Source: Frigoribacterium sp. ACAM 257 (GTDB lineage: Bacteria; Actinomycetota; Actinomycetes; Actinomycetales; Microbacteriaceae). Taken from it: a DNA stretch of 64,000 nt. This document shows positions 21,951 through 27,873 of the stretch, one piece after another (position 1 is the first letter of the stretch; each line of letters opens with the position of its first letter). The stretch covers positions 1 through 64,000 of the forward strand of contig NZ_VOLO01000001.1 of assembly GCF_007954365.1 (NCBI RefSeq), written 5' to 3'. A model generated the notes under the pieces. The model worked only from the letters and a program-made list of their open reading frames with translations, was not told where the DNA came from and did no database searches. Position numbers and translations under genes: made by a program.

Positions 21951-22100
21951 CTAGAGGAGGCCGAACACCGTCAGCAGTCCCGCCGCCGCCGTGGCGCCCG
22001 CGGCGATCGCGGAGCCGACGATCACGAGGAGCGTCACGCGGCGCTCCCGGTCGCCGACGGGGCCGGCAGAGGAGACGCGCTGCGGATCGGGGTACGTCAC
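21951..22100 (-). CDS. Single-pass membrane micro-protein
   Basis: 49 residues from a GTG at 22100 with a perfect GAGGAGG ribosome site 7 bases upstream. N-terminal polar part ending in DRERRV and then one hydrophobic helix, TLLVIVGSAIAAGATAAAG. The charge pattern and the RxLTLxV helix entry resemble the 47-residue protein at 25078, so the two may be paralogues. Function unknown. It lies between the SRPBCC and kinase genes. Confidence 0.65.
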   Translation of the reverse strand: MTYPDPQRVSSAGPVGDRERRVTLLVIVGSAIAAGATAAAGLLTVFGLL

Positions 22101-23882: not shown

Positions 23883-23963
23883 GACCCCGAGGGTACCCGG
23901 CGGCTGCGGGGGAAGCGGCCGGGGGCCCCAGGGCGGCCTGCGCGCCCGGCCTTGCAGACGCGC

Positions 23964-24440
23964 CTAGCGCGCCGCGACCGGCGCCGAGGTCGGGGCCGGG
24001 GTCTGCTGCGCGGCGATGACCGAGCTGAGCTCGTCCAGGAACGCGCTGACCGCCTCCGCCTGCTCTGCCGGGACGCCCATCAGGAACTTGCGGACGTGCG
24101 GAGCGCTCGTCACCGTGTCACAGGCGTCGCGCCCGGACTCGGTCGTCGTGACGATCTTGCGGCGTCCGTCGGCCGGGTCGGGGGTGCAGGTGATCAGCTC
24201 GGCGTCCTGGAGGCGGTGCAGCAGGTTCGAGACGGCGGGCGTCGAGAAGCCCAGGGTGGTGGCCAGCGTGCTCGGCGTCATCGGCTCGTCGGTCTGCTCG
24301 GCTGCGAGCACCAGGGCCAGCGCGTCACGCTCGGTGCGCGGCAGCGTGCCTGCCGAACCTCGGCGGTCGAGTCGCTGCTCGGTGATGCGCCAGGCCTCGA
24401 GGGCGGCATGCAGGCGGGCTGCCTGTATCTTCTGCGGCAT
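23964..24440 (-). CDS. MarR-family regulator
   Basis: 158 residues. Winged helix-turn-helix core with ALVLAAEQTD, STLATTLGFSTPAVSNLLHR and the wing DPADGRRKIVTTTESG, followed by a helical C-terminus. It follows the four-gene micro-operon (24556-25221) on the same strand after a 115-bp gap containing repeated GGGTC units, and it is its most likely regulator by position. Ligand unknown. Confidence 0.85.
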   Translation of the reverse strand: MPQKIQAARLHAALEAWRITEQRLDRRGSAGTLPRTERDALALVLAAEQTDEPMTPSTLATTLGFSTPAVSNLLHRLQDAELITCTPDPADGRRKIVTTTESGRDACDTVTSAPHVRKFLMGVPAEQAEAVSAFLDELSSVIAAQQTPAPTSAPVAAR

Positions 24441-24555
24441 GTAGGGCGGGTGTCCTCTGAGTGGTCAGGTCGTCGGGTCGGGTCGGGTCGGGTCTGGTCG
24501 ATCGGTGCTGGCCAGGGAGCAGCCAGCCGACGTGCGTTTTCTCGCTGCGGGAGGA

Positions 24556-24645
24556 TCAGTCGAGGTCGTCGTCGTCGATGGAGGTGTCGAAGTAGGAGAC
24601 GTGGTCGGCCGCCACGGCGCCGAGGATGCGGTCGGCGAAGGTCAC
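24556..24645 (-). CDS. Micro-operon gene 4: 29-residue acidic peptide
   Basis: GTG start at 24645 overlaps the stop of the preceding gene as GTGA. The peptide begins MTFADRILGAVAADH, continues VSYFDTS and ends in an acidic IDDDDLD tail. VSY is also found near the end of the 106-residue protein (VSYASFF), which may hint at common origin. No similarity is recognised. Very short, so real translation is inferred from the coupled arrangement and coding-like codon use. Confidence 0.5.
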   Translation of the reverse strand: MTFADRILGAVAADHVSYFDTSIDDDDLD

Positions 24646-24962
24646 GAGGCGACCGCCATCTCACGGTCGTCCCTGGCCGAGGCCGCCTCGGGCTCGACGA
24701 AGAAGCTCGCGTAGCTGACCTCGAGCGGGCGGGCGGGCTGCACGGCCAGCGTGGCCGACTCGACCGACTCGGCCATCGACGCGACGACGTCGCGGACCCG
24801 ACGGCGACGCGGGTAGGTGTCGATGCGGGCCGCGGGGACGGAGCGCTCGCGGACGTAGAAGCTGTCGAGCTCGGCCGCGGTGGGGCGCACGGCGGCGCCG
24901 ACACGACCGCCGACCGCGGCCACGAGGCCCTCGTGCGTGAGCCGGCGCAGGTCGACGCTCAT
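24642..24962 (-). CDS. Micro-operon gene 3: 106-residue protein of unknown function
   Basis: 106 residues, soluble, no signal peptide. Arg-rich centre (TYPRRRRVRDVV) and an aromatic/acidic end (LEVSYASFFVEPEAAS). The ATG overlaps the stop of the 40-residue gene as ATGA, and its own stop overlaps the GTG of the next gene. I do not recognise a family. The central IDTYPRRRRVRDV might bind nucleic acid or a partner, but this is a guess. Confidence 0.65.
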   Translation of the reverse strand: MSVDLRRLTHEGLVAAVGGRVGAAVRPTAAELDSFYVRERSVPAARIDTYPRRRRVRDVVASMAESVESATLAVQPARPLEVSYASFFVEPEAASARDDREMAVAS

Positions 24963-25081
24963 CGGAGCGCCTCGGAGTCGAAGAGCTCGGCGAGGTCGAG
25001 GGGCTGGGTCTCGGCGAGGAGGTGGTGGCCGTCGACCCGGGGCGTGGTCGCCGTGTGCGTGGGAGCCGTCGACGCGGTCAT
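24959..25081 (-). CDS. Micro-operon gene 2: 40-residue peptide
   Basis: 40 residues. Thr/Ala/Pro-rich N-terminal half (MTASTAPTHTATTP), then HHLLAETQPLDLAELFDSEA and a final Leu-Arg. No membrane helix. ATG overlaps the stop of the 47-residue gene (ATGA), and its stop overlaps the ATG of the 106-residue gene in the same way. A two-part layout with an acidic DLAELF helix resembles a leader or docking segment, but no modifying enzyme is nearby, so a RiPP precursor is unsupported. Confidence 0.6.
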   Translation of the reverse strand: MTASTAPTHTATTPRVDGHHLLAETQPLDLAELFDSEALR

Positions 25082-25221
25082 GCGCCTGCGCCCATCGCGA
25101 AGAGCATGCCCGCGATCAGCGTGCCGCAGGCGGCGAGGGCGGAGGTGGCGACGACGAAGAGCGTGAGCTGACGGTCGGCGTCGCGGATCTCGGTGAAGGG
25201 GGAGTGCTGCGTGGTGGTCAT
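25078..25221 (-). CDS. Micro-operon gene 1: 47-residue membrane protein
   Basis: 47 residues. Polar N-terminus (MTTTQHSPFTEIRDADRQ) followed by one hydrophobic helix (LTLFVVATSALAACGTLIAG) with a small-residue-rich face and one Cys. AGGA ribosome site six to nine bases before the ATG. It is the first gene of four overlapping genes. Similar in layout to the 49-residue protein at 21951. A small membrane regulator, toxin-like peptide or scaffold are all possible; none is proven. Confidence 0.65.
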   Translation of the reverse strand: MTTTQHSPFTEIRDADRQLTLFVVATSALAACGTLIAGMLFAMGAGA

Positions 25222-25399
25222 GTCCTGCTCGTTCCTGTCAGCCCTGCGCTGACCTCGAGGTGCATGTCTCTCGTGTCTCGTGCCGCCGTGAACCGGCACA
25301 CGAGAATGGTTACACAGTCTCGCTAGTCGCTCTAACTAGATGACCTAGAGAGTTCGCAGAACGGACATGCCTCGAGGCCGAGAGACCTCGACCCGGCCC
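25222..25399 (-). promoter_or_regulatory. Promoter region of the micro-operon
   Basis: An unusually A/T-rich island for this genome (about 25300-25350). On the minus strand it contains CTCTAGGTCATCTAGTTAGA, with repeated CTAG/TAGA half-sites that could be a MarR operator, followed by TGTGTAACCATTCTC as a rough -10 region. No gene is seen here. The exact promoter is not certain. Confidence 0.4.
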
Positions 25400-26743
25400 C
25401 TACGGGCCCGTCGGGGCGGTCGGCACCGAGGTCGCGGGCGACTCCGCATGGTGCTCCAGGGGCGTCACGCGCACCGTCGCGATGCGGTAGCCCTCCATGC
25501 GGACCACCTCCAGCACGGCGCCGTCGACAGCGATGGTGTCGCCGACGACCGCCAGTCGCCCGAGCGCGTCGAACACGTAGCCGCCGACGGTCTCGTACGG
25601 GCCGTCCGGCAGCGAGACGCCGGTCTCCTCCTCGAGCTCCTCGACGATCAGTCCGCCCTCGACCTCGCGGGTCTCGCCCGCCTCCAGCGTGCCCTCGCCG
25701 CGGTCGCCGGTGTCGTACTCGTCGTAGATCTCGCCGACGAGCTCCTCGAGCAGGTCCTCCAGGGTGACGATGCCGTCGGTGCCGCCGTACTCGTCGATGA
25801 CGACCGCGATCTGGTGCCCGTCGTCGCGCATCGTGCTGAGCGCCGCCAGCACCTTGGTCGTGCCGGGCAGCGCGAGGATCGGCCGCGTGATGTCGGCGAC
25901 GGTCGTCGCCTGCTCGCCGCCCGCCGCGGGCACGGACGCCATCAGGTCGCGGACGTGCACGAAGCCGAGCACGTCGTCGCGGCTGACGCCGACCACGGGG
26001 TAGCGCGAGTGCGGCAGGGCCAGCACGGTGCGGTACCCGTCGCTGACGGACGAGTCGCCGGCGAGGAACGACACGTCCGGCCGCGGCCTCATCACCTCGG
26101 CGACGCGGCGGTCGTCGGCGTCGAGCACGTCGGCGAGGATGCTGCGGCTGTCGCGGTCGATCTCGCTCGTGTTCGAGATGATGTCGCGCACCTCGTCGGC
26201 CGAGACCTCGTCCTCCTTGCGGTCGGGGTCGAGCCCGAGGAGGCGCCCCACGGCGTTCGTGGACACCGACAGCAGCCAGATGACCGGCCGCATCAGCCGG
26301 GCGAGGGCGTTCAGCGGCGGCGCGAGCGTCTTCGTGAACGCGACGGACTTCTGCATCGCGAGCCGCTTCGGCACCAGCTCGCCGAACACGAGCGAGAGGT
26401 ACGCGACCACGAGCGTCATGCCGATCAGGGCGACGGTCGACGCGACGCTCTCGGTCAGGCCGAGGGCCACGAGGCCCGGCACGAGGTCGGGCGCGATCGT
26501 CGAGGCGCCGTAGGCGGACGAGAAGAAGCCGGCCAGGGTGACGCCGATCTGCACCGCCGAGAGGAACGTGTTCGGGTTGCGGACGAGCTGCCCGATCTTG
26601 CGGCCGCGGTCGCCGCCGGCCTCGATCGCCCGCACCTGGCTGTCGCGGAGGGTCACGATCGCCATCTCGGTGCCCGCGAACACCCCGCCGATCAGCACGA
26701 AGACGACGACGAGGCCGATGTTGAGCAGGGTGTCCGTGTCCAT
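25400..26743 (-). CDS. CNNM/CorC-family membrane protein (hemolysin-C-like)
   Basis: 447 residues from the ATG at 26743. N-terminal DUF21 membrane domain (about 1-190, with FAGTEMAIVTLR and FGELVPKRLA), paired CBS domains (about 205-330; MRPRPDV, VVIDEYGGTDGIVTLEDLLEE), and a C-terminal CorC_HlyC domain (about 345-430). The family is linked to magnesium/cobalt or sodium efflux; hemolytic action is historical naming. The frame is open upstream to 26809 but the natural start is MDTDTLL, with a weak ribosome site. Confidence 0.88.
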   Translation of the reverse strand: MDTDTLLNIGLVVVFVLIGGVFAGTEMAIVTLRDSQVRAIEAGGDRGRKIGQLVRNPNTFLSAVQIGVTLAGFFSSAYGASTIAPDLVPGLVALGLTESVASTVALIGMTLVVAYLSLVFGELVPKRLAMQKSVAFTKTLAPPLNALARLMRPVIWLLSVSTNAVGRLLGLDPDRKEDEVSADEVRDIISNTSEIDRDSRSILADVLDADDRRVAEVMRPRPDVSFLAGDSSVSDGYRTVLALPHSRYPVVGVSRDDVLGFVHVRDLMASVPAAGGEQATTVADITRPILALPGTTKVLAALSTMRDDGHQIAVVIDEYGGTDGIVTLEDLLEELVGEIYDEYDTGDRGEGTLEAGETREVEGGLIVEELEEETGVSLPDGPYETVGGYVFDALGRLAVVGDTIAVDGAVLEVVRMEGYRIATVRVTPLEHHAESPATSVPTAPTGP

Positions 26744-26969: not shown

Positions 26970-27338
26970 TCAGGCTCGGTCGTGCAGGGTCACGTGGTAC
27001 CCGTCGGGGTCGGCGAACGTGAAGGTGCGGCCGAAGGGACCGTCGATCGGCTCGGCGACGACGGGGACGCCCGCCTCGACCAGTGCGTCGTGGATCGACT
27101 GCACGTCGGTGGCGTGCAGCCAGAGCGCGACGCCGAGGCCGGGCTGGGCGACGGAGTCGAGGTCGGTGCCCGGCAGGAGGCCGCGCAGCGCGAAGGCGAT
27201 CGGCGTCGTGGTGAACACGACGGCGTGCGGCGGGCCGGCGGGCGAGCGGACGAGGCCGAGGTGCGTCTCGTAGAACGCCCGGGAGGCGTCGAGATCGCGG
27301 ACCTGGAGGGAGACGAAGTCGGGGCCGGTGACGGGCAT
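26970..27338 (-). CDS. Glyoxalase/VOC-family protein
   Basis: 122 residues. Typical vicinal-oxygen-chelate fold with two beta-alpha-beta-beta-beta units: FVSLQVRDLDASRAFYETHLGL at the start and FTFADPDGYHVTLHD at the end, the latter ending in the usual DPDG motif. Divergent from a MarR gene with two operator-like palindromes between, so probably induced by the MarR ligand. Reaction (dioxygenase, isomerase or resistance) not evident. Confidence 0.85.
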   Translation of the reverse strand: MPVTGPDFVSLQVRDLDASRAFYETHLGLVRSPAGPPHAVVFTTTPIAFALRGLLPGTDLDSVAQPGLGVALWLHATDVQSIHDALVEAGVPVVAEPIDGPFGRTFTFADPDGYHVTLHDRA

Positions 27339-27380
27339 GGGAGCTCCTGTGGGGATCGATGGTGAGGGAGGTGGTCGTTG

Positions 27381-27396
27381 TGTCAGTCTTCTGACA
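27381..27396. promoter_or_regulatory. MarR operator, site 1
   Basis: TGTCAGTCTTCTGACA: 6-bp perfect arms around four bases, between the divergent VOC and MarR genes. Confidence 0.7.
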
Positions 27397-27408
27397 TCGC
27401 TGACGGTA

Positions 27409-27424
27409 TGTCAAGATGCTGACA
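27409..27424. promoter_or_regulatory. MarR operator, site 2, touching the MarR start codon
   Basis: TGTCAAGATGCTGACA has the same TGTCA/TGACA arms as site 1. It ends on the A of the ATG at 27424 and overlaps the possible leaderless -10 CAAGAT, so binding should block the MarR gene itself. Confidence 0.65.
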
Positions 27425-27873
27425 TGAGTCAAGGCATCGACCTCGAGACGTCGCTCGGCTACCTGCTCAAGGAGGCGTCCAGCGCCCTGCGGTCGGCGAT
27501 GGAGGAGGTGCTCCGACCGCTCGGCATGACGGTCACGCACTACTCGTGCCTCGAGCTGCTCGCGCAGCGCCCCGGCCTGTCGAACTCGGAGCTCGCCCGC
27601 GGGGCCTTCGTCACCCGGCAGTCGATGAACGTCCTGCTCCAGGCGCTGGAGCGAGAGGGGTCGGTGACGCGGCCGTCGGAGGCGCCGGTCGGCAAGGCCC
27701 TGCCCGCTCGCCTGACGCCCGCGGGTCGACGGCGTCTCGCGGCGGCGACCGCGGCGGTGCGCGGCGTCGAGCTGCGGATGCTCTCGGGCATGAGCGAGGC
27801 CGACCGGCCCGTCGCCCGCAGGCTGCTCCGCAGCATGGTCGAGTCGCTGCGCGAGTCGACGCGCGACGCTTGA
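27424..27873 (+). CDS. MarR-family regulator
   Basis: 149 residues. Winged-helix core: YSCLELLAQRPGLSNSELARG, FVTRQSMNVLLQALEREG and the wing TRPSEAPVGKALPARLTPAG. The ATG at 27424 lies inside operator site 2 and has no Shine-Dalgarno, so a leaderless, autoregulated transcript is likely. The divergent VOC gene is the probable target. Convergent with the surface-protein gene at 27983 across hairpin family D copy 2. Confidence 0.88.
   Translation: MSQGIDLETSLGYLLKEASSALRSAMEEVLRPLGMTVTHYSCLELLAQRPGLSNSELARGAFVTRQSMNVLLQALEREGSVTRPSEAPVGKALPARLTPAGRRRLAAATAAVRGVELRMLSGMSEADRPVARRLLRSMVESLRESTRDA

What the first reader, a model, noticed from the sequence alone, without database searches (positions are those of the whole stretch)
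24556..25221. Four overlapping micro-genes next to a MarR regulator: candidate new small-protein system
Seen directly: on the minus strand four frames of 47, 40, 106 and 29 codons follow each other with ATGA, ATGA and GTGA overlaps, the first with an AGGA ribosome site, and a MarR gene follows. The first is a single-helix membrane peptide, the second a T/A/P-rich peptide with HHLLAETQPLDLAELF, the third an Arg-centred protein ending SYASFFVEPE, the fourth an acidic peptide VSYFDTS...DDDDLD. None is recognised. Perfect coupling over four tiny frames is unlikely by chance and suggests a stoichiometric complex or signalling peptide set.
Basis: partly seen in the sequence, partly recalled or inferred. 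Interest (0 to 1): 0.8.

Follow-up and report, generated by a model that had tools for sequence, protein, structure and literature searches.

The report
Modular small-protein operon with structured leader
Four tiny overlapping genes in a Frigoribacterium bacterium look real and belong to a dispersed, apparently undescribed family of mix-and-match small-protein operons that share a promoter signature and a folded RNA leader and often sit beside regulator genes; what the small proteins do is not yet known.

Summary
In detail: P1 (47 aa, membrane helix), P2 (40), P3 (106) and P4 (29) overlap by 4 nt each, and a MarR gene follows. They look like genuine genes: the six orthologous operons found in Frigoribacterium keep order and overlaps, dN/dS among the four closest is below 1 for P1-P3 (P4 is too short to judge), and coding bias resembles MarR's. 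P1-P4 match no model above cut-off in Pfam, NCBIfam, PHROGs or PADLOC. They belong to a modular family: the modules recur in other combinations at other loci, P3 mainly in Frigoribacterium and Frondihabitans, P1 in at least seven genera of one family. Many cassettes in the two main genera share a two-box promoter and a leader hairpin with seven covarying pairs and a near-constant loop (RUUCACGG), not in Rfam. Of 38 strong hairpin hits in 26 genomes, 37 precede known cassettes and the last a similar frame. In six genomes tested, cassettes lie near MarR and AraC-type genes far more often than expected. Best guess: a membrane-anchored small-protein assembly made in set ratio, working in a circuit with a local regulator. 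Assembly, targets and direction of control are untested.

The parts
25355..25365 (-). promoter box 1, TCCGN4GCG (TCCGTTCTGCG)
   Evidence: Joint pattern with box 2 in 16 genomes: 22 of 23 matches lie at cassettes; the own genome has two, both at cassettes
25323..25334 (-). promoter box 2, TAGN5CTAG
   Evidence: Same pattern; whole span of the two boxes 41-43 nt at 18 sites, 32 nt at 4, 51 nt at the one unassigned match
25306..25312 (-). possible -10 region (TAACCAT)
   Evidence: Position and resemblance only, by eye from the upstream sequences; the consensus scan found no sigma-70-type promoter
25279..25300 (-). leader hairpin H1, 7-bp stem and loop GUUCACGG
   Evidence: 39-row alignment, all 7 pairs with changes on both sides; model hit of 35.2 bits; the model was built from such leaders
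25237..25253 (-). leader hairpin H2, 6-bp stem and loop GCAGG, just before the initiation element
   Evidence: 12 of 28 leaders, chosen for forming the stem; present in the predicted fold
25228..25236 (-). conserved initiation element AGRAAYGAG (AGGAACGAG)
   Evidence: Upstream sequences
25078..25221 (-). P1, 47 aa, SPFTEIR motif then one hydrophobic helix
24959..25081 (-). P2, 40 aa, LAETQPLDLAELF motif
24642..24962 (-). P3, 106 aa, LTHEGLV, VPAARIDTYPRRRR and SYASFF motifs
24556..24645 (-). P4, 29 aa, FADRIL, SYFDT and acidic tail
23964..24440 (-). MarR-family regulator, 158 aa, possibly in the same transcript
   Evidence: Pfam MarR_2 40.7 bits; orthologue in the same 6 of 16 genomes as the operon; no terminator-like site found in 23900-25450

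Best explanation
The four frames are genuine genes read as one unit, probably with MarR, from a promoter of a type shared by sister cassettes. The 5' leader folds into two hairpins next to the initiation site and probably controls translation. The stop-start overlaps let the same ribosomes make P1 to P4 in a set ratio. P1 sits in the membrane; P2, P3 and P4 are short-motif proteins that most likely assemble on or near it. The assembly most likely works in a feedback circuit with the local one-component regulator, here MarR, either controlling it or controlled by it. Shown: frames, overlaps, selection on P1-P3, modular family, promoter signature, covarying H1, regulator proximity. Inferred: co-transcription, translational control, membrane position, assembly, the circuit and its direction.
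For: Order and 1- or 4-nt overlaps in 6 of 6 operons; dN/dS among the four closest 0.09-0.41 (P1), 0.24-0.70 (P2), 0.23-0.41 (P3). P3 family in 16 of 16 Frigoribacterium genomes. Modules recur at other loci. Promoter pattern: 22 of 23 matches at cassettes. H1: 96.0% of cells paired, 61 cells with changes on both sides against 18.4 in shuffles; of 38 genome hits of 26 bits or more, 37 at known cassettes and one at a similar small hydrophobic frame. A MarR domain lies within 1.5 kb of 9 of 34 cassettes in six genomes, 1.4 expected; 8 of 22 AraC_binding_2 genes there lie within 2 kb of a cassette, 0.17 expected. The MarR orthologue is in the same 6 of 16 genomes as the operon.
Against: No experiment. 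Many cassettes have no MarR, TetR or AraC gene close by, for example the second own-genome cassette at C9:159 kb. Ten genomes lack the MarR orthologue; 9 of them keep the promoter pattern at cassettes, so this MarR is not the common regulator of that promoter. Modules can be missing (P3+P4 without P1, P1 alone, P1-P2-P4 without P3), so no fixed four-part complex is universal. Some cassettes lack the promoter pattern (none in G001) or H1 (L012, L019). AlphaFold gives P3 no confident fold (pTM 0.21). P4 dN/dS is 0.33-1.04 on few sites.
Confidence: 0.42

Rival explanations
1. Effector model: the local regulators merely switch the cassettes on or off. The small proteins are effectors (for example membrane-stress or envelope factors) that act elsewhere and do not touch the regulator.
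For: Regulators of several unrelated families (MarR, AraC, TetR, GntR) lie beside cassettes, which fits local controllers better than one shared protein partner; cassettes without a near regulator exist.
Against: The co-presence of this MarR with this operon would fit a tighter partnership too; no effector target is known.
Confidence: 0.36
2. P1 is a type-I-like hydrophobic toxin whose translation is restrained by the leader RNA, and P2-P4 moderate it.
For: Small hydrophobic peptide, several copies in many genomes, structured leader.
Against: P1 is missing from cassettes that keep the same leader, such as L005-L011; PADLOC found nothing for P1-P4. An antisense RNA was not looked for.
Confidence: 0.07
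3. Secreted or processed signalling peptides, for example precursors of modified peptides.
For: Short conserved motifs and acidic tails.
Against: P2-P4 lack a strongly hydrophobic stretch. The nearest neighbours besides MarR are a CNNM-type membrane protein and a protein kinase (named by eye from the translations, not scanned); no modification enzyme was recognised.
Confidence: 0.05
4. Cassettes are mobile or selfish elements that landed near regulators.
For: Dispersed copies and shuffled modules.
Against: No transposase or integrase was recognised beside them (by eye, from the first 48-50 residues shown, no family scan); no phage match for P1 and no plasmid match for P3; purifying selection on the proteins.
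Confidence: 0.05
5. The frames are spurious and only the promoter or leader RNA matters.
For: The leader hairpin is conserved on its own account.
Against: Coding bias, dN/dS and protein motifs kept across loci and genera.
Confidence: 0.01

Closest known systems
MarR-family autoregulated operons (recalled, for example marRAB of E. coli)
   Same: A MarR gene next to, and perhaps in one transcript with, the genes beside it
   Different: The companions are four tiny uncharacterised proteins upstream of marR; related cassettes elsewhere sit beside AraC, TetR or GntR genes or no regulator
Small membrane proteins that tune sensors or regulators, such as MgrB (recalled)
   Same: A single-helix membrane peptide of about 47 aa, possibly linked to a regulator
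   Different: No relation to MgrB was tested; P1 is coupled to further coding frames and has paralogues in many genomes
Streptomyces conservons (recalled)
   Same: Conserved small multi-gene operons with several paralogues per genome
   Different: None of P1-P4 matches a Pfam or NCBIfam model above cut-off; the proteins are far smaller (recalled comparison)
Type I toxin-antitoxin systems (recalled)
   Same: Short hydrophobic peptide behind a structured leader
   Different: Coupled coding frames and modules without the hydrophobic peptide; antisense RNA not looked for
Rfam cis-regulatory leaders
   Same: A structured 5' leader with a near-constant loop in front of a set of operons
   Different: No Rfam family matches

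Membership tests
MarR family (the regulator only) | MarR winged-helix domain above the curated cut-off | tested here: met
   PF12802 40.7 bits against 27, PF01047 32.5 against 24.6
Any curated family for P1-P4 | Match above cut-off in Pfam, NCBIfam, PHROGs or PADLOC | tested here: not met
   Only a sub-threshold LptM match for P1 in Pfam (13 bits against 27.3); nothing at E 1 or less in NCBIfam, PHROGs, PADLOC
Rfam RNA families (leader) | Match to a covariance model | tested here: not met
   In 601 bases of the window two matches far below gathering score, on the plus strand (E 1.3 and 4.1); none at E 1 or less in 20 loci
Attenuation by leader peptide | Terminator hairpin with U run in the leader | tested here: not met
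   No terminator-like site in 23900-25450 (a simple consensus scan)
Type I toxin-antitoxin | Small hydrophobic peptide | tested here: met
   P1 highest 19-residue hydropathy 2.06
Type I toxin-antitoxin | Antisense or trans RNA antitoxin | not tested
   No transcript data available
Modified-peptide (RiPP) cluster | Modification enzyme beside the precursor | tested here: inconclusive
   Neighbouring frames were only read by eye, not scanned against families
Translationally coupled operon | Conserved stop-start overlaps | tested here: met
   1- or 4-nt overlaps in 6 of 6 operons; coupling itself was not measured

The most novel reading that the evidence does not exclude
A lineage-specific regulatory architecture: one-component regulators of different families each work with a dedicated, translationally coupled micro-protein cassette that acts as a membrane-bound co-regulator, and a common trans-acting factor that reads the near-constant RUUCACGG loop sets the output of the cassettes in the cell together.
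Probability: 0.18. Interest if true: 0.85.

Novelty: categorically new. Interest (0 to 1): 0.64.

Why it matters
Tiny genes are often missed by annotation (recalled). Here a family of them is visible, with protein-level selection, mix-and-match modules, a shared promoter signature and a covarying RNA leader, none of which was found in the curated libraries searched. It offers a compact, testable case of several micro-proteins made in a set ratio and of a shared RNA loop that may co-ordinate paralogous operons. Frigoribacterium, which I recall as a harmless environmental genus, would be the place to test it.

Tried and rejected
Rejected: spurious frames; phage or defence origin (no PHROGs or PADLOC match for P1-P4; P1 not in the phage records; P3 not in the plasmid records; P2 and P4 were not searched there); a known RNA family; this MarR as the sole regulator of the promoter; H1 as a plain DNA operator, because its arms vary with compensation while the loop stays, the reverse of what a protein-DNA site would show (inference). 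Led nowhere: AlphaFold of P3 (pTM 0.21, so no fold search was made); PDB sequence search with the P3 alignment (one match, E 0.17); paper searches (held no paper; one search listed one genome announcement and three papers, of which I saw the listing and the start of the abstract only; none of those is on this topic); P1 beyond the family (297 genomes of the order: outside the family only two hits of E near 1e-3, inside frames of 483 and 557 aa).

Limits of counts. The H1 sites were found with the pattern RTTCACGG, so the constant loop in A5 is partly by construction; a looser look and the model search also met a variant, GATCCACGG at L018. A5 holds 39 of 43 distinct sites: one with stem 3 and three with stem 0 were dropped. 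In one search the number of pair types was reached by 12 of 500 shuffles, the other four measures by none. A7 holds 12 of 28 leaders, chosen because they form the stem; of the other 16, eight form it shifted by one and eight do not; two of five measures (pairs with change on both sides, 153 of 500; pair types, 68 of 500) do not stand out from shuffles. The reversed-pattern control gave more matches (168 summed over its table) than the pattern (23); reversing turns CTAG into GATC, and I recall CTAG as a rare word, so it is a poor null; the argument rests on where the matches fall. The 34 cassettes were merged by hand (one start), with two marginal P3 hits kept (G011:C2, G260:C2) and three weak P1 hits left out (G000:C6:21954, G011:C7:32030, G003:C2:307144). 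MarR positions were those on cassette contigs that I picked by eye from the list, which was itself cut; 4 of the 9 linked cassettes are orthologues of this locus. The TetR list was not used for a count; several TetR-like neighbours are not in it.

Full report
What is there. On the minus strand P1 (25221-25078), P2 (25081-24959), P3 (24962-24642) and P4 (24645-24556) follow with 4-nt overlaps, and a MarR gene (24440-23964) follows 115 nt later. The codon-usage score per codon is 0.37, 0.27, 0.28 and 0.63 against 0.23 for MarR; the other frames are near or below zero. P1 has one strongly hydrophobic stretch (19-residue mean 2.06), P2-P4 none above 0.97; net charges are -1, -4, 0 and -7.

Are they genes? 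Six orthologous operons were found among 16 Frigoribacterium genomes. All six keep the order P1-P2-P3-P4-MarR. All three junctions are 4-nt overlaps in five; the sixth (L016) has one 4-nt and two 1-nt overlaps. Among the four closest (L001-L004), dN/dS is 0.09-0.41 for P1, 0.24-0.70 for P2, 0.23-0.41 for P3, 0.33-1.04 for P4 (few sites) and 0.06-0.17 for MarR. P3 alone finds relatives in 17 of 60 genomes: all 16 of the genus and 1 of 44 others.

A modular family. At other loci the same modules recur in other combinations: P3-P4-P5 (L005-L011); P2-P3 (for example L013, L015, L021, L023) or P3 without an evident P2 (L029, L165) beside an aminodeoxychorismate-lyase-like gene named by eye; P1-P2-P3-P4 (L019); P1 alone (L093); P1-P2-P4 (L095); P1-P2-P3 with a TetR gene in a third genus (L129, TetR by Pfam; L133 by eye); P1-P6-MarR in another (L138, MarR by Pfam). 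A P3 profile finds 23 of 398 Microbacteriaceae genomes: 13 of the own genus, 7 of a second genus and 3 marginal ones, of which one (G389) shows P1, P2 and a short P3 in order. A P1 profile finds 52 of 398; hits better than 1e-6 fall in seven genera. In 297 genomes of the order nothing convincing lies outside the family. The two main genera are named through a leader pattern scan of named genomes and the agreement of contig lengths: of 20 stretches 15 are Frigoribacterium and 1 Frondihabitans; the other four (two Nocardioides, one Martelella, one Nitrososphaera) showed no module by eye and are taken as chance. P1-P4 match no model above cut-off in Pfam, NCBIfam, PHROGs or PADLOC.

Promoter. Upstream sequences share TCCGN4GCG and TAGN5CTAG. 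In 16 genomes the joint pattern gives 23 matches, 22 at cassettes; the own genome has two, both at cassettes; one genome (G001) has none. The whole span is 41-43 nt at 18 sites and 32 nt at 4, about one helical turn apart, and 51 nt at the one unassigned match; this suggests contact between bound proteins (inference). Not every cassette has the pattern. The reversed-pattern control was more frequent (168 matches) than the pattern and is a poor null.

Leader RNA. By eye H1 lies upstream of 28 of the first 30 loci (not L012 and L019; L018 is a variant; many of the 30 are orthologues). An exact core pattern occurs twice in the own genome, both at cassettes; at up to two mismatches it has 369 matches against 122 for the reversed pattern, so the sequence alone is not specific. 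In 39 of 43 distinct sites 96.0% of cells pair, all 7 pairs show changes on both sides, and 61 cells do so against 18.4 in shuffles; the loop is constant partly because sites were found by it. A covariance model on 26 genomes gives 38 hits of 26 bits or more, in 10 of 10 Frigoribacterium and 5 of 7 Frondihabitans genomes and 0 of 9 genomes of other genera. Thirty-seven are at cassettes already found; the last, in G219, has box 2, a variant of box 1 and a 57-aa hydrophobic frame that the P1 profile did not list. Weaker hits, under 26 bits, occur in all 26 genomes and are taken as chance. The model was built on cassette leaders, but whole genomes were searched. A second hairpin H2 next to the initiation element is seen in the 12 of 28 leaders chosen for forming it. 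The own leader folds with z -2.92. Rfam has no match.

Regulators nearby. The MarR orthologue (E 1e-55 or better) occurs in 6 of 16 genomes, the same six in which the operon was found. In six genomes with 34 cassettes a MarR domain lies within 1.5 kb of 9 (1.4 expected; binomial 6.6e-6; four of the nine are orthologues of this locus). Of 22 AraC_binding_2 genes in the same genomes 8 lie within 2 kb of a cassette (0.17 expected; binomial 3.9e-12; some may be orthologues; none is in the own genome). Of ten neighbouring genes given to Pfam four are MarR, one TetR (24.1 bits against 24), two AraC, one GntR, and two TetR-like ones were not confirmed; these ten were chosen by eye because they looked like regulators.

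How it may work. The overlaps imply coupled translation in a set ratio; the leader implies control at or near initiation; P1 implies the membrane. A feedback circuit with the local regulator is the reading I hold most likely, at 0.42, closely followed by the plain effector model, at 0.36. Neither is tested. P3 has no confident predicted fold (pTM 0.21), which fits a protein of short motifs but does not prove it.

Novelty. Searches found no paper; two searches listed four papers, of which I saw the listing and the start of the abstracts, none on this. The family, the promoter signature and the leader appear undescribed in the libraries searched. I call it categorically new as an architecture, while its function is unknown.

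Noticed in passing
window 21951-22100, minus strand: A second small membrane frame whose helix part matches the P1 profile weakly (E 1.4e-5), with similar weak hits near the operon in G007, G011 and G012; may be only composition.
   Followed up: partly
window 27328-27873, plus strand: Another MarR-family gene (PF12802 hit at 27520-27681), divergent from a small glyoxalase-like frame at 26970-27338 (named by eye).
   Followed up: no
G003:C2:307144-307359, minus strand: A weak P1 hit (E 0.0025) has a weak H1 hit (20.7 bits) about 90 nt upstream on the same strand; probably a further cassette, left out of the counts.
   Followed up: no
L166 3048-5798: Two P1 cassettes about 2.2 kb apart on opposite strands with two TetR-like genes (by eye) between them.
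   Followed up: no
L167, L168, L174, L191, L199, L200: A 110-130 aa family (start like VKRLHY, then TGDAIAEA) lies near cassettes in both genera.
   Followed up: no
L131, L135, L138, L121, L221, L222: A further partner module P6 of about 90 aa (W..AD..W....GYFGGTID) follows P1, in L121 after P2, in several genera; the two given to Pfam had no match.
   Followed up: partly
L213-L216, L218, L220: In one genus P1 cassettes sit near a PurF-like gene, and in another (L206, L208, L209, L212) beside DNA-ligase-like genes (named by eye).
   Followed up: no
L254: The best hairpin-model hit under 26 bits (25.8) is a terminator-like hairpin just after a tRNA-like sequence (read by eye), taken as a chance match.
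   Followed up: yes
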